64,000 nucleotides of DNA from Orbilia blumenaviensis (Eukaryota > Ascomycota > Orbiliomycetes > Orbiliales > Orbiliaceae): assembly GCA_036872755.1 (NCBI GenBank), contig JAVHNS010000002.1:2356001-2420000 (forward strand), read 5' to 3'. The stretch's first letter is position 1. Each line of letters begins with the position of its first letter. Below the pieces are notes generated by a model. That model worked only from the letters and a program-made list of their open reading frames with translations. It was not told the DNA's origin and did no database searches. This document shows positions 13,828 to 50,488 of the stretch, in pieces. The position numbers and the translations under genes are program-made.

Positions 13828-15331
13828 TGCGGATGATTCGATTCGGTTCGATTATGGTATCGTGATGCAAGTAGAAAGAAGCTGTGCAAAGAAATAGGAA
13901 GAAAAAAACTGAATAGAAAAGGAGAAAGGAAGAGAAAAACAAAAAGAGGGTCTGAGCCTGAGGAATCAAAAAGATGATATAACGATATACAAAAGACGAC
14001 GTCAGGCAAAAAAGCTTAGGGGACCAGTTAATTCGCAACTTTAGGGAAATTGCGAATAATCTTGTGGTCTAGGACAATGGCTGTATGAGTGACCCACAGC
14101 CAATTTAACGGTGCAGCGATGTGATGATAATTATAGCGACTCTTCAGTATTTTGAACTGTCAAGTATCTGCTCTGGTGAAGCTCCTGAAACATTAATGCT
14201 TCATCTTGACATCCGCAGTTGCCCTGTCCGTTGTGTGTATAATAATGTGGGCACATCTAATAAGTCCTTGAGAGGTGCTATTAGCACTTAGTTAAGATTC
14301 TGTGCTTATGAATTGGAGCTATAGAATTGGAGCCGGGGGGGATTGGGTTGGGAGGACAAGGTGGGCGCATGGAAGGTGGAGACCCGGAAATGCGCCAGTT
14401 GCTTGGGATGTGGTTACTAAGTAAACTAGGACCGCTAGCTAACCAGAGCAACCGAGGAGTATCTCCGTTCAGCCCAGAATCGGATGACTGGCAACTGCAA
14501 CTACTACGACCACGACAGAGCATTTTTACAAGCTGGGCTGGTTACTTGGTACTGAGGGAAGTACCTGATTACTAGGGAGATGTACATGTACCCACAGAGC
14601 AGAACAATTACCAGGCTCCCTGTGCATAGTTTTCATGCGAGCCACTGAGCATTGCAGCTGTCGTGTCGACTGTCATGTCCTGTCCCATCCCAGATAGGCC
14701 CCCCCCCTGGCCCGTCTCTTACTAAACCGTTTAACCAACTAGACTACGAAGTGGCAACTAAGTCACTAGCACACACCCATATCGAGAGAGTCGGCGACGG
14801 TCGGGTGGGAAGCTGCTGGATACATGCATTGCAGAGCCTGCATATGGCGAAATGTCGGGCGGGGTGTTGCAAGAGAGACGGAGGGGGACAACCAGCTTAC
14901 AGCTTAGAAATCGCCCCGCTTCGGTGCCACTATAAAATTCTTGTCGGCTGGTCCGACATGAACATCCTTCCCTCCATTTTGCTTGCAGTAAAAAGCGGTT
15001 ACTTAAGTCCCCCCTCCGAGGATCCCAAATAAAAAATAAACCACCCCGGCAGATCAGATAAAAAATCCTCCCTCGACGGCCTCCCTCCCTCTTCTTTATC
15101 AATCTCATCTGATAAATCTGCTTCCGGCTTCCATTGATCGATTTGATTAGTACCTTACCTAGGTACTTACTTGACTCTCTTCCCTTAACTTCAATTGCAT
15201 TGCATTGCCCCTCCACATCCGTCCTATAGCTACCCCTCCACTCGCCAAGCTCGATCGCAACCTTACCGACCGAGCCTTCCTCACACCAAAATTTGAAAAA
15301 ATTTAAAACACTAAAAAAAAAAGTGTCAGAA
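13828..15331. other. divergent intergenic, RIC8 / GRX4
   Basis: 1.5-kb region between two divergent genes, so it holds both promoters. The last 250 bp before the glutaredoxin start are CT-rich and then A-rich, typical of a fungal 5' leader. A long minus-strand open frame running from here into the glutaredoxin gene (14758-15690) is antisense to that gene and was not accepted. Confidence 0.5.
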
Positions 15332-16135
15332 ATGGCGACACTGCACACTCCGACAACCGTTGAGGCCTTCCGAGAGGTCTTCTCCTCCGTCCCAGACAAT
15401 ACCCTGCTTGCTATTTCCTTCCACACATCATGGGCTGCTCCTTGCAGGCAGATGAATGAGGCATTTGCCGCCATCGCCGGTGCTTCTTCGCCAGACAAGG
15501 CTGTCTTCGTCTCTATAGATGCCGAGGAAGTACCTGATGTCTCCGAGGAATACGAAGTCTCCGCTGTTCCTTTCTTCGTTCTCGTCAAGAGTCGCCAGAT
15601 CCTGCGTAAGATCTCCGGTGCCGACCCGAAGGAATTGAACGATGCCATCCAATCACTCAGTGGTGCTGCCAGCAAAGTCCCATTAGCCATCCCTCCTGCA
15701 CAAAAGGTAGCTGCTCCGACCAGCAGTAGCTATGATCATGCCAGTGCCGGTGCAGCGGCCCCTGCAGATCCGAACGGTACCACGGACAGCGCCGCGGCGG
15801 ATGACACAGAGTTAGAGGAGGAATCATTACACGAACGCCTGACGAAACTTGTCAACGCTGCTCCAGTCATGCTATTCATGAAGGGTACACCCGCAGAGCC
15901 GAAGTGTGGGTTCAGCAGACAGCTGGTGGCCATTCTCCGGGAGCGTAATATCCGGTACGGGTTCTTCAACATCCTCAAGGATGACGAAGTCAGGCAGGGA
16001 TTGAAGGAGTACAGCGACTGGCCTACTTACCCACAGCTATACCACGAGGGAAATCTGGTGGGAGGCTTGGATATCGTCAAGGAGGAGTTTGAGAATAACG
16101 AAGAGTTTTTGAGCGAGCAGGTAGTTCCGTCGTGA
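15332..16135 (+). CDS. grx4: monothiol CGFS glutaredoxin with thioredoxin-like domain
   Basis: Intronless, 267 aa. The first half is a thioredoxin-like domain with a WAAPC active-site-like motif (the canonical motif is WCxxC, so one cysteine is missing) around residue 31-35. A low-complexity Ala/Thr/Asp linker follows. The second half is a monothiol glutaredoxin domain with MKGTPAEPKCGFS, then SDWPTYPQLY and the GGLDIV glutathione-binding segment. This is the Grx3/Grx4 architecture. These proteins bind a bridging [2Fe-2S] cluster through the CGFS cysteine and glutathione in the cytosol and nucleus. They work with BolA-type partners in iron sensing and iron delivery. The open frame extends upstream from a TTG, but the ATG at 15332 (MATLHTP) is the natural start. 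Confidence 0.93.
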   Translation: MATLHTPTTVEAFREVFSSVPDNTLLAISFHTSWAAPCRQMNEAFAAIAGASSPDKAVFVSIDAEEVPDVSEEYEVSAVPFFVLVKSRQILRKISGADPKELNDAIQSLSGAASKVPLAIPPAQKVAAPTSSSYDHASAGAAAPADPNGTTDSAAADDTELEEESLHERLTKLVNAAPVMLFMKGTPAEPKCGFSRQLVAILRERNIRYGFFNILKDDEVRQGLKEYSDWPTYPQLYHEGNLVGGLDIVKEEFENNEEFLSEQVVPS

Positions 16136-23673: not shown

Positions 23674-25464
23674 TTAAACTTTACTGTTATGCTCCATCTG
23701 AATATGACGGATGGTTCCATATTTATCCAAATAGTAGAGATCATCGCCGGTGGCAGCCAACATTTCAATGTGGGTGGGTGTTTCGAAATATTTCCAGTCC
23801 GTGATACTCTTTCCCCAGGTGTCCCCCAGGCTATTTACCCCGCCTTCATCATCTGTCTTTTTGTTGTACAATACCCCACGCCTCTGTTTCGATGTTATAT
23901 ATCGATGTGACTTTGCGGTTGCGAAATCGGGTCTGTTGGTTTCCATCTCGGCGCCCCTGTTCAACCGCTGCCCAAATGCTAAAGTGGCCCGGGCTCTTGG
24001 ATCTAACAATTTATTCCACCCACTTTCCTTCGTCCACTCGTAGATAGAGCCAGACTCTAATTTATAAAGTGTATCTCCACTGCCGATCAGTCTGGAACCC
24101 GCCTCAGGGTTGAAACTGCCAATAATATCCCAGCAATCGATTTCTTCATTGTGAACAAAGATATCGCCCTTTGCTGTCCATTCGTAAACCTTCGAACCAG
24201 TTGCTAAAATGGGTCTCCCAATCTCCTCTGACCCTAGCGATTGTGAAGAGGTATTAGAATCGGTGTCACTATCATCGAATGCTAAGATATCACCGTCATA
24301 TAAACGCATATAGAAATTTTTGCATTCATAGGATGATGCTATGGCGAGAAAAGAGCCCCCAGATTTGAATTTCTCCCATTTTCTCGAAGTGTGCCGGCAT
24401 CTCCAGACATCTTTGTATTCGTCTATCCGGTATATATAGTGGACACTGGACACGGACTCAGATGCCACTGGGTGCTCGCCAGCAGAATAAATCCTTTCCC
24501 AGAGCCCTGATGACCTCTTGTACCTCTGAATACTTCCCCTCTCATCAATTGCATACAGACCGCCATTCGGGGCAGGAATAATAGCCACGGTCTTTTTTGG
24601 TGTATACATACAATCCAGTGTGAGGTCCCAAGTCTTGTCTTGGGTCCCGAAGGCTTTCGGTTTGCTCAATTGCACACCCACCCCGAATTTAAGAAATGAG
24701 GACTTCAACCAAATCGCCTGGATATCCTTGAAACCAATCTTGGGACTTGATTTTGTGTATAGGGGCCACATAACTGTCGCCTTGTTTTCCGAATGTGGAA
24801 GACCGAATAGATGACCGACTTGGTGGAACACCACACTTTCCAAAGTGTCAGTCGACCAGTCCTCATTTTCATCAAAGATCATCTCCACGGGAGCTTTAGT
24901 ATTGGGGTGGTCTTCTGGAGGATGCACCACAACCCCCCACCCCCCTGCCTTGAGCCTGCCGTTGCTTTCCTTAGTCCACCTGATTACAATGTCTCCCTTT
25001 CCAGGATGTGGTGCGACCTCAACGAATTCCACAGGGTCAATGGAGTACTCGGCCCACGCTTTGAATGCCTTGACCATGGTTGAACGGGTTTTCTCGACTG
25101 AAATCTGATGTGAATATTCAGCAAAACAGTACGTAAGCCGGTTTTCGCCGGTACGAAACCCATGCCCACCGACACGATTGGGATTAAATAGGCTACTAGT
25201 TCCAATATCGCCATGGCAATGTGGCTTGTTGAAAAGAGTAGCGGTTGAATGGTTAAAGACGCCGGTTTTCGGAAGCCCGCATGACTTTTGGAATTTGTGG
25301 AGGCCAGTTGATAGAGCAGCATATCGATTTAAATAATCCGAAGGGTCCTTATACTTTGCTTCTGTACCAGCAGGCAGACAGTTGAAACAAGTCAGATGAG
25401 AGATTATATGGTCGATAGCAGTCTGGGTTTCTCCAGCCACATCGTTAGGCTTTGGTAGGAACAT
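23674..25464 (-). CDS. matrixin-like pseudoprotease, paralogue 1
   Basis: Single exon, 596 aa. Residues 1-85 are a propeptide: conserved HLTCFNCL (about 23-30), then a peptidoglycan-binding-like helix bundle (LHKFQKSCGLPKTGVF) ending in KPHCHGD, which resembles the MMP cysteine switch (Cys83). Residues 105-240 form a matrixin (M10) domain: LTYCF, AFKAWAEY, a structural-metal-like segment GGWGVVVHPPED and EMIFDENEDW. The zinc motif is HQVGHLFGLPH (His214, His218, His224), followed by the Met-turn ATVMWP. The catalytic Glu expected at 215 is Gln (codon CAA, 24820-24822), so peptidase activity is not expected. From about 285 to the end are short repeats of the type LYAIDERGSIQRYKR...W, suggesting a tectonin-like beta-propeller. 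There is no signal peptide. The start aligns residue for residue with paralogues 2 and 3, which supports it. Confidence 0.85.
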   Translation of the reverse strand: MFLPKPNDVAGETQTAIDHIISHLTCFNCLPAGTEAKYKDPSDYLNRYAALSTGLHKFQKSCGLPKTGVFNHSTATLFNKPHCHGDIGTSSLFNPNRVGGHGFRTGENRLTYCFAEYSHQISVEKTRSTMVKAFKAWAEYSIDPVEFVEVAPHPGKGDIVIRWTKESNGRLKAGGWGVVVHPPEDHPNTKAPVEMIFDENEDWSTDTLESVVFHQVGHLFGLPHSENKATVMWPLYTKSSPKIGFKDIQAIWLKSSFLKFGVGVQLSKPKAFGTQDKTWDLTLDCMYTPKKTVAIIPAPNGGLYAIDERGSIQRYKRSSGLWERIYSAGEHPVASESVSSVHYIYRIDEYKDVWRCRHTSRKWEKFKSGGSFLAIASSYECKNFYMRLYDGDILAFDDSDTDSNTSSQSLGSEEIGRPILATGSKVYEWTAKGDIFVHNEEIDCWDIIGSFNPEAGSRLIGSGDTLYKLESGSIYEWTKESGWNKLLDPRARATLAFGQRLNRGAEMETNRPDFATAKSHRYITSKQRRGVLYNKKTDDEGGVNSLGDTWGKSITDWKYFETPTHIEMLAATGDDLYYLDKYGTIRHIQMEHNSKV

Positions 25465-26196
25465 TTCTGAAAAGGGTTATAACGTGTTTACTGTATTGTC
25501 GCACAGAACTTGTACAATTGTGGTATATTCATGCTCTATCGACGTCAAAATATATATGTGGTATGGCATGTGGCACAGCAACCCCATCGCTACCTACTCT
25601 TTTAACCGCTGCCTAATATAATTGTGCGTTTCCAGTTTCAGAAACTCCTCGGTACGTGCAATTTTTTATTAACATCTGACAGTTGACCTGTCCCGTCCCT
25701 GTTAAATTTGTGTCTGGTGCAATAACATATTTTGGTCATTGAGTAAATCGCGCTGGCCGGCTATAGTGCCCGGAAATCTTACGCTCCTCGTAATTAATTT
25801 AGATGTCAGAAAACAATGCCTAAAGTTTCCCACAAAGAAACACTTACATGGTCTATGACACAGCTCCCTGTCATTGAGTATTAATACTCAGTAGTATTGG
25901 GACCACTTCGTGGAGGCTGGGTTACGAGATCAATAAGATTTACAAAGTATATATTTTTTGATGGTGGCCGGTGGCCGAAATTTATATTCGCTTACAATTC
26001 TTTAAAAACCTATTGTATTATTTGTATCAAATCATTGGATAGCATCAAAGTCAATTCAATCAACTGCAGCGCATTGAGATATAAATTGTTACATTAACAG
26101 AAGATCATTATTTGGGGATGGAGTTAATGTCCATTTATGAATTTTAATGGAAGATGACCATACACATGTAAATATAGTTTACAATCTAGATCTTGC
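25465..26196. other. AT-rich spacer between paralogues 1 and 2
   Basis: 732 bp containing the paralogue 1 promoter and the paralogue 2 terminator. A small AT palindrome (AGTATTAATACT) lies near 25877. No gene seen. Confidence 0.5.
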
Positions 26197-28014
26197 TTAC
26201 AAGATCACACACGATGACTTAGATGGTATATGCTCAACTGGCAAAGCCAGTTTATAGATGCATCCAGTCTCATCCAAACAGTACAAACTCGCATCGGCTG
26301 CCGAGAATTCTAGACCACGCTTAATTTCTGGCTGTTGGATCCACTGTACCGGCGAAGATTGCGAGGTTTCGTTTGTTAGCTTCGTGTATAAAACCTCGCC
26401 ATTCTTGCGATATATCCACAGGTATGATTCTGTAGCTGCAATTTGGGCAATTCTTTCATCTCCGTCCACTCTTTCCCATGTGGCATATGCATATGCACCA
26501 TCGCATTCCAATAGTCCGAGGCCCGAGAACTCTTGCAACCCATACATTCGACCCCCGGCGCAGACAACCTGTTTTGTTATGTGATCCGTGCTGACTGACT
26601 GCGACCGTTTACGGATACCACCAGCCACGGTTACAACCTGACTATAATTGCCCACCATCGTCCAAAGTACTAGATTATCAGCCGCCACAATACTGGTAAT
26701 CCAAGGGTGGGGTAAAGGGCCCTCGACTACCTTCCATTCCCCTTTTGGGGCTTCGTTGTTCTGAACATCGATATTAGCGAAATCGCATTCACCTACAGTT
26801 TCTTTTTCAGAATCTCGTTCCCCATACACCAAAATACTCTTCCCATTTTCTACTTTGTAGAGATCCTTGCCATCTCTAGCCGCTCCGATAATTTTTTCAT
26901 GTCGAGACCCTGGGTCAATACATCGGAGCGAATCCTTTTGTTCTGTGCATTGGTAAATTGCATTATTCTGACTCAATATAAAGAGGTATTTAGAATTGGC
27001 CTCGATTTGTGCAGCTACCAGGCCTCGATATGTGATAGCCCTGATCGGTTCCCATGTTCCGATTATCTTGTGGTTGTACTGGAAAACGCTACCGTTTGTA
27101 TCTCGTCGATAAAATTTATTACCGGGAGCCGCAACGATCTGTGCTACCTGGCCAGGTTCGGAATCCAGAATCTTATGCCACTTTCCACACTCTGGCTGCC
27201 ATTTCGCCCTTAGAGTCCCAAAATAGTCTTCATTGATATCTGATTTGGCCAGGATTCTATATGCCGGCCACATAATTGAATGATTGTTATCCGAGTGGCC
27301 AAGCCCAAGTATATGCCCCAGCTGATGGATCAGTACCCCAGAAAGAATATCTTTTGTGCACACCATTTCCTCATAAAAGCATATATCAATACACACCCTC
27401 ATGGGGTTGGTGCTTTCGATATCTTGATCCGCCCAATATGACATATAGACACACTCGTCTTCCCACTCAAGTATGTTTATGCGTCCGTCACGCTCGAAAC
27501 TGCTAATTTCAGATTGTGGGTCACCCAGTCGCTGCCGCCAGCGGATTTTAACGTCGGCGGAATGGTGAGGCGCTACTTCTTGGAACTCGTAAGGAATAGG
27601 ACAAGGCACCCTCCAAAACGTGAAAGCAAGGTCAAAGATTTCTCGAACGTCTCCCACGGGTATCGTGTCAGGGTACCTCTCGAAACAGTATTTTATTTCT
27701 GTATCTTCAAGCGTACTCCGAAGTTGTATATAATCCCCATGGCTGTCGACTTTATGGCAGTGAGGTTTTTTAAGTCGCTGGGAGGTGGCCACATCGAATA
27801 TTCCCGTTTCTGGAAGGCCCACCGACTTCTGGAATTTTGCAATACCGGTGCATAGTATGGCGTATTCATCAACTTCGTCTTTCGAATCGAGCTTTGCATG
27901 GGCTTCTTCTTCGGGCAAGCAGTTAAAACAGGCAAGGTGTTTTATGATGTGTTTGATCGCAGGTCGGGCTTCCCTTTGGATGTCTTCAGAGGTTGGCCAT
28001 GTTGCATTTTGCAT
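26197..28014 (-). CDS. matrixin-like pseudoprotease, paralogue 2, with CaaX end
   Basis: Single exon, 605 aa from the ATG at 28014 (MQNATWPTSEDIQREA). The open frame reaches back to a GTG at 28038, but the MQN start lines up with paralogues 1 and 3. The propeptide has HLACFNCLP and a peptidoglycan-binding-like segment (AKFQKSVGLPETGIF) with KKPHCHK. The matrixin domain has IKYCFERYPD, LAFTFW and HQLGHILGLGH with His at 230, 234 and 240, then the Met-turn SIMWPAY. The catalytic Glu is replaced by Gln231 (CAG, 27322-27324). The C-terminal half has repeats such as KFYRRDTNGSVFQYN, consistent with a beta-propeller. The last residues are SKSSCVIL followed by stop, a good CaaX box; Leu at the last position favours geranylgeranylation. 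The absence of a signal peptide agrees with a cytosolic, membrane-anchored protein. Confidence 0.85.
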   Translation of the reverse strand: MQNATWPTSEDIQREARPAIKHIIKHLACFNCLPEEEAHAKLDSKDEVDEYAILCTGIAKFQKSVGLPETGIFDVATSQRLKKPHCHKVDSHGDYIQLRSTLEDTEIKYCFERYPDTIPVGDVREIFDLAFTFWRVPCPIPYEFQEVAPHHSADVKIRWRQRLGDPQSEISSFERDGRINILEWEDECVYMSYWADQDIESTNPMRVCIDICFYEEMVCTKDILSGVLIHQLGHILGLGHSDNNHSIMWPAYRILAKSDINEDYFGTLRAKWQPECGKWHKILDSEPGQVAQIVAAPGNKFYRRDTNGSVFQYNHKIIGTWEPIRAITYRGLVAAQIEANSKYLFILSQNNAIYQCTEQKDSLRCIDPGSRHEKIIGAARDGKDLYKVENGKSILVYGERDSEKETVGECDFANIDVQNNEAPKGEWKVVEGPLPHPWITSIVAADNLVLWTMVGNYSQVVTVAGGIRKRSQSVSTDHITKQVVCAGGRMYGLQEFSGLGLLECDGAYAYATWERVDGDERIAQIAATESYLWIYRKNGEVLYTKLTNETSQSSPVQWIQQPEIKRGLEFSAADASLYCLDETGCIYKLALPVEHIPSKSSCVIL

Positions 28015-28725
28015 TGTAGGAATGAGTTGTGCAGCCACTATGAGCAGCAGTTACGTTTATACGGCCTTGACCTAGTGGACCTTATTGGGTTGATGTAGCG
28101 TTAAATTAATGTTAATAGCGTTGGAACTGTTAAATGAGATTAAGATATTTGTTTGCTTGTGGGTCTCTTTGATTGACGGATTATCGTGAATAGGCTCCTC
28201 GAATGATAGGTTTATACGCTTCCGACGTGTGTGTAGACATTAGAGATTTTTAGAGCGGGGCTGCTGGGGACGTCACAATGAGACGCATACGAGACCAGGT
28301 GGTGATTGGTTGTGCACGTGCATATTTGTACTGCCTGAGACATATCATCTTTTTTCCAGGCATTATATGATTACTAAGTCAGCATGGTCAAAAGTAGAAG
28401 CTAGGACCGGGCTGATGTTGTCTCTAAGATATAGATCATTATACCACTATCATTTTCAATATTAGATTATCTTTCATGCTTATGGTTAGTACTATAGTAC
28501 TACTAGGGACGAATATATAAATCTAATTCTTCTGGTGATATCGCGCTATAGTAGATAATTTTGCGAAAATCCGTTTATATATCAAGCAACCCTAGCTGTA
28601 GGGATTGCATCTACGGTTAGCTGGTTCCAGCGAATTGATATTGTAATTGTCTGAATTGAAAGGTTCGGAGGTTATACATGCAGGCGAGTATTTATTGTAC
28701 ACATATCGATATCAGTCAATCGATC
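28015..28725. other. AT-rich spacer between paralogues 2 and 3
   Basis: 711 bp, AT-rich, holding the promoter of paralogue 2 and the 3' region of paralogue 3. Small palindromic runs (for example TAGTACTATAGTACTA near 28489-28504) are present. No gene seen. Confidence 0.5.
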
Positions 28726-30582
28726 TCAACCCCCAAGTTTAGGCCGATAAATATAAATATTTCCACAACTATCCAGGCAATGCAAGTTGGAATCGGCTGC
28801 AACGAACTGCTCAACTCTCACAAGATGAATAGATGGCATTTGCACCCAACTCCCCGAGGTTCCCCAAATATCTTTGCGGTTATTATAGTAGCAGGCACGT
28901 TGTAACTTCGTTCCTGGCACTGCAAGATAGGCGTACACATAGGACCCAGTTGCCGCTATCATTACTTTTTGGGCGTTTTCGAGAAGGGTTACTTCGGGAA
29001 GATGTATATCTATCCAGGCCGGATAGATAGAACCAATGTCAGTCCCATCCCACTCATTCAGACTTCCTGTTGTTGCATCGAATCGATACAAGAGATTCTC
29101 AGAACCGACTATTTTGATGTTTTCCAGATCCATTTCCCCTTGGATTTGACGACACTGTCTATACCTCCCGTTAGACTGATGTATTGTCCCATTTTGGTGA
29201 ATTATGAACACTTCCGAGGCGGTTGCAACTATATCGACGGTCCCGCCCTTAACACACCGATCTAGCAAGACCCATCTACAATCCACTTCATTGCTGAAAC
29301 AGGACACGAAGACCTGAGATGTTCCGTATAATTGATATAATGCCTTTCCGTTCTTTGCAGCTCTGATTATCCTTGTAGGCGCATGCGGTGATGGAGACTC
29401 AATCTGTTCCCACATTTTACCACTCTCTCGCCGGTATATGTGTCCATCTTTCTGCAATAGGAATAAGTATTGGGAAGTAGCATCGATCTGTACTGCCGGG
29501 AGGTCTTGATTGACACATTCCCATTCGCCCCCACCTTCGTATTTCCAAACAGAGCCATCAACGTCCCGGCGATAGAGCTTTCCTCCAGGTGCAGCGACAA
29601 TTTCTGCAACTGTCCCGGGTTTCGATTCCGCCCTCTTGATTATATACCATTTGCCGTTATCTATGGTATCGATACCTCCAGTTTGTAATGGATACTTCAC
29701 TCTGATAGCACTGACATCACTACCGTGTAGCTTTGCATTGCGGTAAGCCGGCCACATAACCGCATTTTCATTATTAGAGTGCCCCAGTCCGAGTATATGC
29801 CCTATCTGGTGAATCACCATACAAGCCAGCCTGTCGGATACCTGTTGTTGGCCTCTCGTTTTTTCATCTGCCGGCTTGTCATCAAAGTAGATCTTGATAT
29901 CGGCGCATGTCCCTTCTTTCGACAATGGCGAGTAGGATATTGCAAAAAAGTCGTCTTTCCACTTGACTATCTCATGCTGCTCGCTCTCAGAGTCCACTGT
30001 TTCGACATCGGTATATTCTGTACTAGCATAGGAAGAGGAATCTGGGGTCGGCATTGTCGAGGTGTTTCGATTATCGATATTGTGCTCCTCATTCTCAGCA
30101 ACTAATCTCTGAAAGTCCTCTCGCCATGAAATCCGTATATCAACCTGCTTATGAGGCGACATCTCTACAAAGGACAATTTCGGCACAAATTGTGCGCTCC
30201 ATCCGGTTAATGCCGCCTCGAAAGCAGCTCTAACTTCAACAACACTAAGCCCATGATCCGGATACTGTTCGAAACAGTAACTCAGTTTACGGGTGCCTTT
30301 ATACCGCTGCTCTGGAAAGATACTATCTCCAGGGCCATTGTGGTTGTGACAATGTGGCTGACGTAAACATTCTGCGGTTTTGGGATCGAATATACCCGTT
30401 CCTGGGAGGCCCATAGACTTCTGGAATTTACCAATGGCTGTGGTTATGGCTGCATATTGCACGAGGCTGTCGGAGGCATCAGCTGGTTGGGTGTAACATT
30501 TGAAGCAGGAAAGATGTTTTTTGATGTATTCGATGGCAGGACTAGATTCCCGCATCACATCACTTGCTGTTGGATTTTGCAT
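28726..30582 (-). CDS. matrixin-like pseudoprotease, paralogue 3
   Basis: Single exon, 618 aa from the ATG at 30582 (MQNPTASDVMRESSPAIEYI). The frame is open back to a GTG at 30609, but the ATG matches the start register of its neighbours. The propeptide has HLSCFKC, IGKFQKSMGLPGTGIF and QPHCHNH. The matrixin domain has LSYCFEQYPD, FEAALTGW, KQVDIRISW and HQIGHILGLGH (His258, His262, His268), then AVMWPAY. The catalytic Glu is Gln259 (CAG, 29806-29808), as in the other two. A Ser/Thr/Asp/Glu-rich insertion of about 35 residues (including STMPTPDSSSYASTEYTDVE) sits before the zinc motif. About seven repeats of roughly 40 residues, such as KLYRRDVDGSVWKYEG and YLFLLQKDGHIYRRE, make up a beta-propeller-like C-terminal half. 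There is no CaaX box or signal peptide. Confidence 0.85.
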   Translation of the reverse strand: MQNPTASDVMRESSPAIEYIKKHLSCFKCYTQPADASDSLVQYAAITTAIGKFQKSMGLPGTGIFDPKTAECLRQPHCHNHNGPGDSIFPEQRYKGTRKLSYCFEQYPDHGLSVVEVRAAFEAALTGWSAQFVPKLSFVEMSPHKQVDIRISWREDFQRLVAENEEHNIDNRNTSTMPTPDSSSYASTEYTDVETVDSESEQHEIVKWKDDFFAISYSPLSKEGTCADIKIYFDDKPADEKTRGQQQVSDRLACMVIHQIGHILGLGHSNNENAVMWPAYRNAKLHGSDVSAIRVKYPLQTGGIDTIDNGKWYIIKRAESKPGTVAEIVAAPGGKLYRRDVDGSVWKYEGGGEWECVNQDLPAVQIDATSQYLFLLQKDGHIYRRESGKMWEQIESPSPHAPTRIIRAAKNGKALYQLYGTSQVFVSCFSNEVDCRWVLLDRCVKGGTVDIVATASEVFIIHQNGTIHQSNGRYRQCRQIQGEMDLENIKIVGSENLLYRFDATTGSLNEWDGTDIGSIYPAWIDIHLPEVTLLENAQKVMIAATGSYVYAYLAVPGTKLQRACYYNNRKDIWGTSGSWVQMPSIHLVRVEQFVAADSNLHCLDSCGNIYIYRPKLGG

Positions 30583-33068
30583 CTTGGGTTGGCGATTATT
30601 ACTGGCCACCGCTCTTCGTATCGTGGTAGGTATAGTCTGTGTGAAATTCTAGCTATCAGACAGAAGTCTATAACTCAGCTAGATATCGATGAATAGAAAA
30701 GCTATTAGTAACTTCTAAAGGTCCTTTTAAAGACAAATGGATTCAAAAGTCAGCTTTCTTTCTTTCGACTTTGCGGATCTGGGTCAAGAGAAATTCTGCA
30801 GGTGCACGCTCGCAGTGATGCTCGGGATACATTATACCTACGAGTTTGTAAGTGGGGTTTGTAGATTTCCGCATCGTTACGAGGCTGTCTTGTCTTCATA
30901 GAAGTTAGGCAACACTAACATAGCGCATACGCAAACATTAAAGTGCTGAATTCAGGCATCTTATGATGTAGTGTGACGGCACAGCTCGGCATCTTCCGTG
31001 AACCGGAATGAGACATTCTCCCTTAGAGTTCCCTTGGAACCCCCAAACTAGTATAGGTACTCTAATAGTCTTCCTTTCCCTCAAATACAACGATGTCATT
31101 ATAATTACCTTACAGGCTTTCGACAAAGTTGCGAGATGGCTTGAGGGCTTCAAAGCCGACCTAAGGAATTATAGTTTCTCTATATTGGCCATGAAATAAC
31201 CTGAACAGCAGAAACTTTTTCTCAAGCCAAACATCCCCCCCTATGGTATACATATATATTTATCTGTCTCGTAAACCAATCCGAAGTACGGGTCAAAACC
31301 CCAGAATTATTTAATCATGTAATCAGCCTATTATAAAATGCGTATGGGCTTTTATATGTTCAAACACTACGTACTAGATTCCCTGTGCCCCCTACTCTAG
31401 TTTGCTTGCTATTTTAATTATAATATTATCTTGAACCAATCTATAGTCGCCGCAGCCCAGTCCCAAATATAAGGGAAAGTTTCGGTGTAATACCGTATTT
31501 AATTATACTAGCTGTCGAAGACACATTACCACATTGATACTAGATTAATTTTTCATTGACTCAATCCTAGTTTTCAGCATAGTATGTAGAAGAAGGTTTA
31601 TACTGTTCATTGATTCCTTGTAGCACACAAAAATATAGATACCTCTGGGCGGATTTTAAACACAGACTGATTTACACCTCGTGCTTTGGTGCCACTATCT
31701 CGCAACTACCACCAGCTGCTGCAGCCACATCATGATAACATATAGATTGTCTCGTCACATATAAAGCTATTTCATAATGTAATTGTGATTATATTGCTCA
31801 TATATGCACATGAATTCGAGCAGCTAAGCTCCAAAAATATTCAACTAACAGTATCCTCCTTAGAGTTTCCGAGCGCTAGTGCTATGAACAACTTAATCAC
31901 AAAGGCGAGAAAGACAGGTATATAAGGTAAGGCGGTGAAGTTCATTCCTTTAAGTGTTTGCAAGTTTGCTGCCATATACCTATACACCTACGCAATACTC
32001 AAAGCAATGTGTAAATTAACACACAGGCCTGCCCGTGTGTTTGGGTCGTACTAATATTTATACTCTCCCAGGTTGGGTTGGAACCCGGAGTCGGGGGGGG
32101 GCGAATTTCACCCTGTTATAACCCAGCTTTCCTAGTCACAGATCAATTCACAAACACATACTATGGTGGTCAAAATGTATCAAAACGATATATGATACAA
32201 AATCGCACAAAATATACATTACAACTTCGCAAAATATATATCACAACTTAAGCGAGGTATAAGTGTGTTAATTTTTCACAATTATGCTCAACCATTAGCC
32301 TGCCCGCCTATCAGAGGCTGGAGAAAAGTTAGACAGCTAAGCGGCGAAAGGCTTAGGCTGCTTCCTTTCTACTAATAAATATAGGTAACTATATGTAATA
32401 GTGTGCGCGTGTTAAATGGCCGGGTATATGGAATAATTATGAGTTAGTATGGTTGAGCATAATTGTGAAAAATTAACATACTTATGCCTCGCTTAAGTTG
32501 TGATATTTTGTGCGAAGTTGTAATATATACCTAGGTATCGTTTAGACGCGTTTTGGCCGCCATAACATAGCTTTATTTTATAACAAATCTTACACCATGC
32601 CTATACCTGATTCATATTTATTTTTATTGACTAATTTAAATGATATCCAGTTATCAGATATCGGTATATAACTACTTAGGTAGGTATAAACAGACATTCT
32701 GGCCCTCCAGTTGCAACCAGAACCCACATACTACTATTCTAATCCCTCCACCTTTTCCGTAGTTAGACTAAACCACCGCAAGTTCTAACCCTTTGCTGAT
32801 GAGAGCCCTGCCATGATCCGCCGTGCAGATAACAACAAAATAAATAATAATCATAATAATGCTAGTAATGCATTAAGGAGCCCTCTCTTAAGCCCCGTAA
32901 GGTAAGCTGAATTGAGGAACGAGTAACAGGAAGAACGGAAAAGCGAATGCATATGAATGGTGAGGCTTTTTAAAAAGGAATAGAAATGAGATGAAGGAAG
33001 ACCGCTATCAATCTCTCAAGAGAAAGGAACAAGAAAAAAAAGTAAAAGAAGGAGAAGAAACTAATCTT
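30583..33068. other. 2.5-kb AT-rich gene-free region with a MITE
   Basis: No credible gene. It contains the promoter of paralogue 3, long AT-rich stretches, the TA-flanked inverted-repeat element at 32164-32562, and a small hairpin (ACACACAGGCCTGCCCGTGTGT, around 32019-32040). A 63-codon open frame at 31008-31199 has no recognisable domain. Confidence 0.5.
32164..32562. mobile_element. Tc1/mariner-type MITE, 399 bp
   Basis: Long terminal inverted repeats: left arm 32164-32295 and right arm 32449-32562. The outer ends are TGGTGGTCAAAATG and, reverse-complemented, TGGCGGCCAAAACG. The inner ends are nearly identical for about 60 bp (for example TTTTTCACAATTATGCTCAA). TA dinucleotides flank both ends (32162-32163 and 32563-32564), as expected for a Tc1/mariner target duplication. 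The 153-bp interior has no transposase, so this is a non-autonomous element. The left arm has about 20 bp extra compared with the right, so it is somewhat diverged. Confidence 0.8.
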
Positions 33069-45468: not shown

Positions 45469-46886
45469 CTACAGCCCAAACATCTCTCGAATGACTAACC
45501 TCATCGCCGATGCTGTCAGGATCTGGTTATGGCCACCCCATGTCACCAACCTATTCTCAATCTTCCATCCACCGACTGGCACTCCTTCAACCCATGTATC
45601 AACATACCCTTCATCACCAAGCTCCAACCTCTGCTTCCTCTTCTCAATCTCCTCAAACTCTAGGGGCTTATCAATCTCCGCCGTCTCACTCTTCTCCTTC
45701 AGCGCCATAATCGCATTCGCAGCAGTATGAAACAGCACCTGCGAATGCGTCCAAACGATGCTATAATCATTATGCGCATGCACCATAGTCAACCTCAACT
45801 TAGGCGAATGCCTAATCAGACTCTTAATCCTCTCCTCCCCATCCCACGGCTCTCTAATATACCTCGTCAACCACTTTTGAACAATAGGATACGGCCTCAA
45901 CGGTGATAAGATCGGAATAACCCCGGCGGCAGAGTACGTCATCACCAAAGTCTTGAAATTCGTAAACCCAGAGCAAAGAACCACTCCTGCGAATTCTATA
46001 CCTTCTTCCCTAGCCAGCTTTTCGGTAACACCGAGGGTTACGGCGGTTCCTAAGGAATGGCCGACGACGAGGATACGGGAGGGTGGGATTCCAGCTGTAT
46101 TCATGGCGAATTTCAGAGCGGTGATGCCGTCAGTGATTAGTCCTTCTTCGGAAGGATCGCCGGTGCTGCGGCCGAAGCCGCGGTAGTCAAGTGTCAGTAT
46201 GTGAATTTTGGAGGGGTCGACGCCGGTCCAGGTGCGATATGCTTCAGGCCGGTAGCCTTGGGCGACGTTTCCGGCGTTCTATATGATAAGGAATTAGATC
46301 AGTATCTTCTATCAGAGGTCCCAACTAGAGAGGCCCATATCATACCCCATGGACTGTACTTGATGTTAGCAAAACCCTCTACATAATATATAAATATAAT
46401 AATAAGTAGAACCACTCACAAAAAACAATCAACCTGGCGTCTTCATCCTCCTTAAGCAATCTAAACCCAAGTGTCTGCGTAAAGTCCTCTACAAGACCCA
46501 CATCTCTCCTTAACAATTCGTCTCGGTGTTTGGCATACACATTCTGTGGGAGAATATGCCATGAGAACAACTTTTCGCCGTCTGGAGTGGTTAGGTAGAA
46601 TGGTGTTATCTCGTTAGCTGCGAATCCCAGCTGCTCTGGCCGGGATAAATCGGGCCAGATGGGGAATTTGATGTGGTGGAGGTAGACGAAGCTGGATTAA
46701 AATCCCGATTAGTTTAGTCCATTAAAGCATATGTGAGATACTATATGTTAGTAGAATGGAAATGGGAGGTTTATACTTCTTCTGTACGACTGGTATCGTG
46801 AGCAGCAACAGGAAAGATACGTAGATACCGCCGAAGCCCACCAGGGACCAGTATGCGGTCTTGAGTGTCGGGTTGAATGGTGCCAT
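45469..46886 (-). CDS. ABHD12-like alpha/beta hydrolase, membrane-anchored
   Basis: Minus strand, from MAPFNPTLKTAYWSLVGFGG (46886) to the stop at 45469. A hydrophobic N-terminal segment (YVSFLLLLTIPVV) suggests a single membrane anchor. Catalytic features are the oxyanion segment LIVFFHGNAGNVAQG, LDYRGFGRS, nucleophile elbow VGHSLG, and the late Asp and His regions (VHAHNDYSIVW; WGGHN). This is the ABHD12/Bem46-like group, mostly serine hydrolases acting on lipids such as monoacylglycerols and lysophospholipids at the ER. The substrate here is unknown. The His-Gly of the oxyanion hole is supplied by an 8-nt microexon (46346-46353). Without it the two flanking exons do not give the family sequence. 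Confidence 0.85.
46346..46353 (-). other. 8-nt microexon of the ABHD12-like gene
   Basis: On the minus strand the exon reads TCCATGGG between an upstream CAG acceptor and a GTATG donor. The preceding exon ends with one extra T, so the join gives TTC CAT GGG (Phe-His-Gly). The next exon starts AAC GCC GGA (Asn-Ala-Gly). Together this makes FHGNAG, the family's oxyanion motif. Confidence 0.8.
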
Positions 46887-47675: not shown

Positions 47676-50488
47676 ATGCCACCGAAAAAGAAATCTAAAA
47701 AGGTCTATCCGCGCAGACGGCCCGGTGAGACGCTGTCGGAACCGGAAAATAATGGCCGCTCACAGCTACCAATGTCCCCTCGGCGGGCTAGGAAGCTTCG
47801 GTATCGGCGTACCAGTAGCTTAAGAAGTGGTATATCTCCGGAACTTGATAGGCTGTCAGTAAGCCAAGAGAGCGCACTGGTAGAGGAGGAAGACAGCCCG
47901 GAGGAGGAAGACAACCCGGGGGACAAAGTGGAAAATAAGGAAGAAGAAAACGGGGGAAAGGGGGGGAAAGGAGAAGATAAGGCGGACAAGGAAGACGAAA
48001 AGGAGAAAGATAAAAAGAAAAACAAAAAGGACGAAGATGAAGAGGAAGATAAAAAGGACGAGGATGAAGAGGAAGATAAAAAGGACGAGGATGAAGAGGA
48101 AGATAAAAAGGACGAGGATGAAGAGAAAGATTCCTTCCCGACTATCCAACGTCCGAAAAGTCCGGGCGACAAAAAGGATCCAGGAGCAGGCGGGGCAGGT
48201 GCCTCTTCTTCTGGGCCGAGGGGACGCCGAACTCGAAGCAATACCATATCTGGAAATGTGTACCATCCAAGCAGTGGAAACCAGAGAGGGAATGGAAGAA
48301 GAACTACTTCTAAATCCGACCCAGAGGACGGAGAGATCATCGAAGATGATTCTACTGTTGACTCGAAAATCGGCGATACATCGGATGCCAAACCTGAAAA
48401 TAATGGCGGAGATAAAATGGATATTGAGACTAAAAGAGAAACCTCACAATATGCCCGGAAGGACGATACCGCTAGCAAAAAGCGCAATAGAGATGCTATG
48501 AACACGGATAGCGATGAAAGTTGGGACGATGATCTCGTGGACTTTGATTCCAAAAGCTCGACATCAAGCGAGGATGATACGAATAAACAACCTACCGAAA
48601 ATCCAATCAGCAATCCTATGGCCCCGGCTCCTCCAACCCACAGGATACTCCCACAGTGTTGGATGACTTTCGACGAGGATGAACTTTCTGAACCAGATAT
48701 AGATTGGTGGGACCAATTTGATCATTGTAATAACTTGAAATGGTGGGATGAAGGGTATATTTATACGGACTTTGATAGCCGTAGCTTCGCAGAGAGGTGG
48801 TGCAAAATTCCTTTTACAGAGTGGAGACGTACGTGGGAGATAGATGACGTTCGAGTAGAATGGTTGCGTGAGTACTACTAGTCTACACACTTTTGGGAAT
48901 AGGAATATCAAATAAATGGTTTTTTGGGCAAAGTGCTAAAGCTGTAATACTACTGCTGCAACATATAGGCGAGTTCTTAGACGACATCGTCCCGTGCATG
49001 GATTCGTCCCAATCCTTACCTACCACTTCCGGGAATAAACCTATCCACAAGGGCATGCTAGTAGCTGCGTTCATGTACCGTGCCGTTCAGATCTTTCGAC
49101 TCCGGTATAACTACGAGACAGTATTTTTGAATCTCGCCAAACGGATCATGATGGAACCAGGCCTGCTCGAAACCATCCCGCCATACTACCGTAGCATCTT
49201 TTGCAAAATCCCACACCTTTCCGATTTCAAACTCTCGCTGCCAACCAGAAATGGACGCAAAAGAGTGGCCATCGCCCAACCCTGCGAGTCTATAGAGCGG
49301 CAGCTAAAGGAAATTCGCTATTGGAAAGTTATAAAGAGAAGGATAGAAAGGGGACTTAAGGGAATACCTATGGGATGGATGACGCTACCGGACGATGACG
49401 GATACGTATTCCCTCATGTTTACGATGATCCGTACATATTCGAGCATTGTCCACGACATGATCCGATGCATCCTTTCAGAGTGGTTCCCCATTGCAAACG
49501 TCCGCCTGGCAAGGGGCCTATGCGTATGAGGCCGATGGAGTATGACGCTAGCCTGTGGATGTCACTCATTAGAAGTCTACATGAGCGTGACGGAGGGACA
49601 CTTGAGGAACCCCATCAGGATACTAAGTGGAGAAACAGATGTATCACGCTACATGAAACGACACAGGGGAGTGATAAGCAAATGGATACTCTGGTTCATG
49701 GGTGTGAGGAAGATATGGCTGATATGCGAAAGCGACATCTTATAGAATCTTGTAATGATGTTGAGATCTACGGGATTTGCATCCGCAGGACTGAAGCGGT
49801 TATGATTAGGTTGCGGAGGATGGAGTATCAAATATCGAATGTTTACAACCTGAAGGATAGAGGTCACCAGAGGGAGTTTTTGTGGTTGATTGTTAATGTT
49901 GTTACTGAGGTGTTTTGGGGGAAGAATATTTTGAAGGAGGGTAGGAAGGAGCCAGACAATTTGCCGAGGCCGGTGGCTATCCCGGATGGCTATATTATAT
50001 CAATCGATGGGTATGAAGGGCTTGAACTTGAGGTTAGGGAGCGAGCTGATGATGGGATGGTCGTGGATAGTGGAGATGATGATGGAGATGATGTTGATTC
50101 TGATGAGGATGGGGATGATGCTGATATAGGGGGTGAAGATGAAGAGGAAAGGGACAACGCTAGCCATGGTATGCCCTGGGTGCAGGTTGGTGGTTACAAT
50201 GAGGATGGTGAGGATGATTACGCTACTGATTATGGAGGCGATGGAGCCTATGAGGAAGACGATGGGTATGAGGAAGACGATGAGGGTGGTTATACGGACA
50301 ATGAGCATGGTGGCGATGACGGTGATGACGACGATGATTGGGACAGCGGCAAGAGCTTTACAAAGGACGATAGTGAAGAAAAGGAAAGTGAAGAAAGTGA
50401 AGAGAGCCACAAAAGTGGAGAAGGAGATGGAAAAGATGACGAAGATAAGATGGAGGATGTTAAGAGAACTGATGACTCTATATCATAA
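47676..50488 (+). CDS. large acidic protein of unknown function
   Basis: Two exons in phase, 47676-48867 and 48969-50488 (903 aa). The N-terminus is very basic (MPPKKKSKKVYPRRRP) and could be a nuclear localisation signal. Next is a long Glu/Asp/Lys-rich stretch containing a 27-nt tandem repeat that encodes DEDEEEDKK. The middle (about residues 320-740) looks like a folded domain rich in Trp, Tyr, Met and Arg, for example WWDQFDHCNNLKWWDEGY and AFMYRAVQIFRLRYNYETVF. The end is again strongly acidic (Asp/Glu/Gly runs). I recognise no family. Exon 1 would stop at 48881 if not spliced. The GTGAGT donor at 48868 and the acceptor before 48969 restore the frame. Two separate genes cannot be ruled out. 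Confidence 0.65.
48030..48131. repeat. 27-nt in-frame tandem repeat
   Basis: Three full copies and one partial copy of a 27-nt unit encoding DEDEEEDKK, inside the acidic protein gene. The copies are nearly identical, which suggests recent expansion or homogenisation. Confidence 0.9.

What the first reader, a model, noticed from the sequence alone, without database searches (positions are those of the whole stretch)
23674..30582. Three tandem matrixin paralogues, all with catalytic Glu replaced by Gln
Seen: three adjacent minus-strand genes read HQVGHLFGLPH, HQLGHILGLGH and HQIGHILGLGH. Zinc-binding His residues, Met-turn (VMWP/IMWP) and the core fold segments are kept, but the general-base Glu is Gln in every copy (codons CAA, CAG, CAG). 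Known: in M10 metalloproteases this Glu is needed for catalysis and Glu-to-Gln mutants are inactive. Inference: the change was fixed before the duplications and kept by selection. This would be a family of zinc-binding pseudoproteases that bind peptide or matrix substrates, act as decoys, or signal. Conserved loss together with conserved fold is unusual.
Basis: partly seen in the sequence, partly recalled or inferred. Interest (0 to 1): 0.9.

Follow-up and report, generated by a model that had tools for sequence, protein, structure and literature searches.

The report
Dead-enzyme matrixins in nematode-trapping fungi
A fungus related to the nematode-trapping Orbilia carries three old neighbouring genes for zinc-protease look-alikes that keep the metal site but have lost the residue needed to cut proteins, as have the relatives found in that fungal family, so they probably bind something instead of cutting.

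Summary
Three intact minus-strand genes encode a proMMP-like prodomain, a matrixin domain and a C-terminal beta-propeller, with HQVGH/HQLGH/HQIGH and codons CAA, CAG, CAG. Ten other metzincin-like loci listed in this genome, six over the Pfam cut-off, all read HE. The 13 fungal family members found (Orbilia/Arthrobotrys plus one unnamed source) all lack the Glu: 9 Gln, 3 His, 1 Tyr. All 11 bacterial-type relatives aligned have Glu. The tree needs one loss of Glu before three old paralogue lineages split, then Q to H twice and Q to Y once: the loss is conserved, Gln itself is not. The zinc His triad and the cysteine-switch Cys are invariant. The fungal rows also share seven invariant Cys/His absent from the bacterial rows. 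The predicted N-terminal fold matches MMP proenzymes best (Z to 15.5). Best reading: a locked, zymogen-like, non-catalytic zinc protein with a propeller recognition arm, probably intracellular. HQ and HH pseudoproteases are known among ADAMs; my paper searches showed no M10 family of this kind. Function and zinc content are untested.

The parts
28726..30582 (-). Gene A: 618-aa pseudo-matrixin (prodomain, matrixin domain, beta-propeller); lineage A, with O. oligospora and O. javanica relatives
   Evidence: ORF; Pfam PF00413 65.0 bits and PF01471 26.4 bits; tree; model
26197..28014 (-). Gene B: 605-aa pseudo-matrixin of the same layout by alignment; lineage B, with A. megalospora P0009 and unnamed P0008
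   Evidence: ORF; Pfam PF00413 53.5 bits; alignment; tree
23674..25464 (-). Gene C: 596-aa pseudo-matrixin of the same layout by alignment; lineage C, with A. megalospora P0025 and A. conoides P0026
   Evidence: ORF; Pfam PF00413 74.5 bits
29779..29811 (-). Zinc motif of gene A, HQIGHILGLGH; the catalytic Glu is Gln (CAG)
   Evidence: column table
27295..27327 (-). Zinc motif of gene B, HQLGHILGLGH; Gln codon CAG
24793..24825 (-). Zinc motif of gene C, HQVGHLFGLPH; Gln codon CAA
30346..30354 (-). His-Cys-His at the MMP cysteine-switch position of gene A (residues 77-79), where the bacterial rows have Arg-Cys-Ala/Gly/Leu
   Evidence: Cys in 24 of 24 rows, flanking His in 13 of 13 fungal and 0 of 11 bacterial rows; alignment to proMMP PRCGVPD
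30496..30516 (-). Fungal-specific HxxCxxC at and just after the end of prodomain helix 1 of gene A (H23, C26, C29)
   Evidence: 13 of 13 fungal, 0 of 11 bacterial rows; helix 14-26
28729..29664 (-). C-terminal beta-propeller of gene A (residues 307-618)
   Evidence: AF2 model; Foldseek and VIA-align matches

Best explanation
These are three old members of an Orbiliaceae pseudoprotease family. Shown: a proMMP-like prodomain plus matrixin domain that keeps the three zinc histidines, the Met-turn and the cysteine-switch Cys, but has lost the general-base Glu in all 13 members found; a beta-propeller follows. Inferred: the zinc is held by three His, probably also by the switch Cys of a prodomain that is never removed, so the domain is a stable, permanently latent zinc scaffold with at most trace peptidase activity. 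The faster-changing propeller is the recognition arm, for a glycan or a peptide. The protein most likely works inside the hypha, or when the hypha is damaged or eaten, as a binding protein of the fungal cytoplasmic-lectin type, rather than as a secreted enzyme.
Confidence: 0.7

Rival explanations
1. Rewired zymogen: the prodomain lock is itself the function. The zinc/cysteine-switch site plus the fungal-specific Cys/His set (H23, C26, C29, H77, H79, C103, H144) form one or two metal or thiol sites that sense redox state or zinc and move the propeller.
For: 7 of 12 fungal-specific invariant positions in residues 1-300 are Cys or His, against 3 of 23 in the mirror set of bacterial-specific invariants. 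Switch Cys invariant in 24 of 24. Bacterial His at columns 168 (absent in 13 of 13 fungal rows) and 232 (absent in 12 of 13; P0002 keeps it) and Cys at columns 93 and 221 (absent in 13 of 13) are missing in the fungi.
Against: No coordinates to show that the residues meet in space. Cys and His are often conserved for other reasons. The hypergeometric p of 8e-7 treats related rows as independent. A disulfide or plain packing would also fit. The alignment near column 168 is gappy.
Confidence: 0.25
2. Active but altered peptidase: another residue (for example the invariant E140, or the substituted His or Tyr) activates the zinc-bound water, giving a slow or specialised enzyme.
For: Zinc His triad (13 of 13), Met-turn Met (12 of 13) and fold are kept. 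PMC11266112 notes that some supposed pseudoenzymes proved active.
Against: The inferred ancestral residue, Gln, is not a base, and the position then changed three times. E140 is equally invariant in the HE relatives (24 of 24), so it is not a fungal substitute. Engineered Glu mutants serve as inactive forms.
Confidence: 0.1
3. Secreted decoy or inhibitor-trap that binds inhibitors or matrix of nematode prey.
For: All named fungal members found come from Orbilia/Arthrobotrys, nematode predators; a fold that could bind MMP ligands.
Against: No strongly hydrophobic N-terminus in any of 13 rows. A docked prodomain would cover the cleft. No prey-side evidence was sought.
Confidence: 0.1
4. Decaying genes: the Gln is one step in the loss of function.
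For: Some O. oligospora models have shortened propellers (P0003, P0005, P0007), and P0007 lacks the Met-turn Met.
Against: Three intact frames, relatives across species, invariant zinc His and second-position constraint; no convincing remnant copy in the window.
Confidence: 0.04

Closest known systems
Matrix metalloproteinase proenzymes (MEROPS M10A by recall, Pfam PF00413)
   Same: Prodomain with cysteine-switch Cys, matrixin fold, HxxGHxxGxxH zinc ligands, Met-turn; proMMP-10, -1 and -9 are the top structural matches.
   Different: General-base Glu absent, switch arginine replaced by His, no signal peptide seen, a propeller unlike hemopexin (recalled) at the C-terminus.
ADAM7 (HQLGH) and ADAM29 (HHLGH), M12 metallopseudopeptidases (PMC11266112, Table 2)
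   Same: Zinc His kept, Glu replaced by Gln or His: two of the three substitutions seen here.
   Different: Family M12, single-pass membrane proteins grouped with sperm maturation (section heading); disintegrin-type rather than propeller C-terminal part (recalled).
Ecm14, fungal M14 pseudocarboxypeptidase (PMC11266112 section 3.4)
   Same: Fungal protein with a prodomain and kept zinc ligands that has lost the general-base Glu (Lys there).
   Different: Different peptidase family and fold.
Bacterial-type PG_binding_1 + matrixin proteins (P0011 Dactylosporangium, P0012 Kocuria, others)
   Same: Prodomain-like part then matrixin, in P0011 and P0012 followed by repeats (P0012 passes a beta-propeller Pfam model); closest non-fungal relatives found.
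   Different: HE in 11 of 11 aligned; lack the fungal Cys/His set; some have ricin-type or no long C-terminal part.
Tectonin 2 of Laccaria bicolor (5fsb)
   Same: Propeller match to the C-terminal domain (TMt 0.65-0.67); named among fungal lectins that lack a signal sequence (PMC6272156 passages).
   Different: A lectin without a protease-like domain; RCC1-like structures rank above it; sugar binding untested here.

Membership tests
Matrixin fold family (Pfam PF00413) | Profile score above curated cut-off | tested here: met
   74.5, 53.5 and 65.0 bits against 24; 13 of 13 family members match at E 0.1 or better
Matrixin fold family (Pfam PF00413) | Three zinc-binding His and Met-turn Met | tested here: met
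   His 13 of 13 at all three positions; Met 12 of 13
Matrixin fold family (Pfam PF00413) | Metzincin fold in a structure model | tested here: met
Active M10A peptidase | General-base Glu (HExxH) | tested here: not met
   0 of 13 fungal rows
Active M10A peptidase | Peptide-bond hydrolysis | not testable with these tools
   needs a bench assay
proMMP zymogen | Cysteine switch PRCGxPD | tested here: inconclusive
   Cys 24 of 24, but Arg is His and the following residue is His in 13 of 13 fungal rows
proMMP zymogen | Structural zinc site of the MMP catalytic domain | tested here: inconclusive
   bacterial His at columns 168 and 232 absent in 13 and 12 of 13 fungal rows, but the region is gappy and the ligand role of these columns is recalled
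Metallopseudopeptidase | Catalytic residue lost while the fold is retained across a family | tested here: met
   (fold tested on gene A only)
Metallopseudopeptidase | Demonstrated lack of activity | not testable with these tools
   none
Tectonin lectin (Pfam PF19193) | Profile match | tested here: inconclusive
   1 of 13 members (P0006, E 6e-7); not listed for the three window proteins
Tectonin lectin (Pfam PF19193) | Beta-propeller fold | tested here: met
   (gene A); shared with many propellers, not specific
Tectonin lectin (Pfam PF19193) | Binding of O-methylated sugars | not testable with these tools
   none

The most novel reading that the evidence does not exclude
A lineage of nematode-trapping fungi took a prodomain-matrixin-propeller protein of bacterial type, deleted the catalytic step, rebuilt its metal and thiol ligands (new HxxCxxC, HCH, Cys and His; old His and Cys gone) and kept the zymogen lock as the working part: an intracellular zinc/thiol-gated recognition protein. 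It would be a lineage-wide M10 pseudoprotease family in which the zymogen state, not the enzyme, is the functional state.
Probability: 0.22. Interest if true: 0.72.

Novelty: new variant of a known kind. Interest (0 to 1): 0.52.

Why it matters
Most metallopseudopeptidases are in M12 and M14 according to PMC11266112 (Introduction), and its two tables list no M10 case. A multi-species M10 family with one inferred loss and a kept zymogen layout would let one ask directly what a matrixin fold does when it cannot cut. It also bears on database names: three of these proteins (P0003, P0006, P0009) are labelled 'matrix metallopeptidase 19'.

Tried and rejected
Recent or erroneous HQ change: rejected, orthologues in several species lack Glu.

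Gln under strict selection: rejected, His and Tyr occur.

dN/dS between paralogues: tried. Nei-Gojobori dS undefined, YN00 failed, ML dS at implausible values (7.8-22); I quote only codon-position differences and Nei-Gojobori dN.

Domain conservation was first counted on 13 chosen pairs (13 of 13), then on all 78 pairs (75 of 78); the three exceptions are P0001-P0008, P0001-P0009 and P0005-P0007. I report the second count.

Third profile search for more relatives returned four rows, all already known. Bacterial genome scan with P0011 gave one Microvirga plasmid locus, matching query residues 255-463 only; a follow-up of that genome listed six PF00413 matches whose motifs I did not read.

Pfam Tectonin search of the own genome found nothing, but its control genomes rang nowhere either, so it shows no absence.

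VIA-align rows for the full-length model were filled by propellers, so the N-terminal part was folded and searched on its own. The third Foldseek job was not used. Genes B and C were not folded.

Literature: no paper on a fungal or M10 pseudoprotease family showed up. Searches list only 20 of 110 and 20 of 58 papers, and the library lacks most subscription journals. sought measured effects of Glu mutants in MMPs; one search gave none, and from the listing (20 of 163) I read passages of PMC3225336 only. The listing led to passages of PMC6272156.

Species: not identified; 'Orbiliaceae relative' rests on best protein matches.

Full report
What is there. The window is G000:C2:2356001-2420000 of a 42.46-Mb, 23-contig genome. 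Three uninterrupted minus-strand genes lie at 23674-25464 (C), 26197-28038 (B) and 28726-30609 (A). Their zinc motifs and Gln codons are as reported: CAA in C, CAG in B and A. Pfam assigns Peptidase_M10 to each (74.5, 53.5 and 65.0 bits for C, B, A against a cut-off of 24) and PG_binding_1 to A (26.4 bits, cut-off 23); B reaches 16.2 bits for it and C is not listed. A tblastn of eight family proteins against the window gave 30 hits: 25 lie in the three genes and five outside, the best of these at E 0.004 and 27% identity.

Relatives. Two single-protein searches of 5.8 billion proteins returned 13 fungal members, window genes included. The other 13 hits are P0011-P0023. I dropped two before alignment: P0020, a plant entry that reads HE, and P0013, which has no zinc motif. 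That leaves 11 rows, called bacterial-type here; only P0011 and P0012 carry an organism name. A profile search with the 13 fungal rows added none. The searches need shared exact words, so more distant relatives may be missed.

The catalytic position. At the position of the MMP Glu the 13 fungal rows read Q in 9, H in 3 and Y in 1; the 11 bacterial-type rows all read E. Five of the nine Q rows are O. oligospora variants. In the same genome a PF00413 search listed 13 places: the three window genes and ten others. Of these ten, six reach the cut-off, three of them only with their neighbours in the frame, and four do not. All ten show an HE motif in an open frame; L022 also shows unrelated His-rich matches in another frame. 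Some of the ten are better called other metzincins (L013 scores higher as Reprolysin_5).

History. A maximum-likelihood tree of 24 rows separates bacterial-type from fungal rows at 100/100 and needs four changes in all: one from E, then, as I read it, Q to H twice and Q to Y once. The fungal side splits into three lineages (C 94/90, A plus B 94/90, B 100/98, A 97/98). Each holds one window gene and at least one gene from another source. So the duplications predate those species, the loss of Glu predates the duplications, and Gln is the parsimonious ancestral state. P0024 and P0026 are long branches, so their placement is unsure. The position itself was left in the tree alignment.

Selection. 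Between the window paralogues third codon positions differ at 65-70% and second positions at 38-45%; synonymous distance is saturated and Nei-Gojobori dN is 0.66-0.83. That indicates purifying selection on the proteins but gives no usable ratio. Over all 78 pairs of fungal rows, prodomain and catalytic domain are each more conserved than the propeller in 75; without the four extra O. oligospora rows, in 34 of 36.

Rewired ligands. In residues 1-300, 12 positions are invariant in the fungi and absent from the bacterial-type rows; seven are Cys or His (H23, C26, C29, H77, H79, C103, H144). The mirror set of bacterial-specific invariants has 3 Cys/His of 23: His at column 168 and Cys at columns 93 and 221. 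The bacterial His at column 232 is missing in 12 of 13 fungal rows; P0002 keeps it. The naive p of 8e-7 ignores relatedness. No coordinates were returned, so whether these residues form a metal site is open.

Where it acts. No fungal row has a strongly hydrophobic stretch in its first 35 residues (best 10-residue mean hydropathy 1.43). This is a crude test. Cytoplasmic, signal-less fungal lectins that act when eaten are a known class, with tectonin 2 among those named (PMC6272156 passages). That is the basis of the proposed role, and it is inference.

Known background. PMC11266112 (outline, passages, Introduction with tables, section 3.4) lists metallopseudopeptidases: ADAM7 HQLGH and ADAM29 HHLGH are close parallels; no M10 protein is in its two tables. 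PMC12587646 (passages and one section) says fungal MMPs are scattered singly among bacteria in its tree, and its main text as held has no mention of Orbilia. MMP28 E241A is described as inactive in PMC3225336 (passages). From memory, not checked: matrilysin with Gln for Glu keeps a small fraction of activity, so 'dead' should be read as 'at most trace'.

Verdict. It is a new variant of a known kind, of middling interest, because pseudoproteases are known but an M10 family with a kept zymogen layout and a changed ligand set did not show up in the papers I could search.

Noticed in passing
26200-26211: Gene B ends in Cys-Val-Ile-Leu, a CaaX-like prenylation end (motif recalled). Its relatives P0008 and P0009 do not end so.
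   Followed up: partly
28726-30582 (relatives P0003, P0005, P0007): Some O. oligospora models of lineage A have shortened propellers, and P0007 lacks the Met-turn Met; either strain variation or gene-model errors.
   Followed up: no
L014 (Microvirga sp. VF16 plasmid): A plasmid locus encodes the repeat part of the Dactylosporangium relative (best segment 57% identity, query residues 255-463).
   Followed up: partly
L007, L009, L010: Three further short matrixins with HE and, by eye, no signal peptide; L007 and L009 have Gln/Asn/Pro-rich tails.
   Followed up: partly
46421-46648: Weak tblastn match (E 0.004, 27%) to the propeller part of P0006 on the minus strand, outside the three genes.
   Followed up: no
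15293-16135: ORF that reads like a monothiol glutaredoxin with a CGFS motif behind a thioredoxin-like domain (named from memory).
   Followed up: no
47676-48881: ORF with an acidic DEEEDKKDE repeat tract.
   Followed up: no
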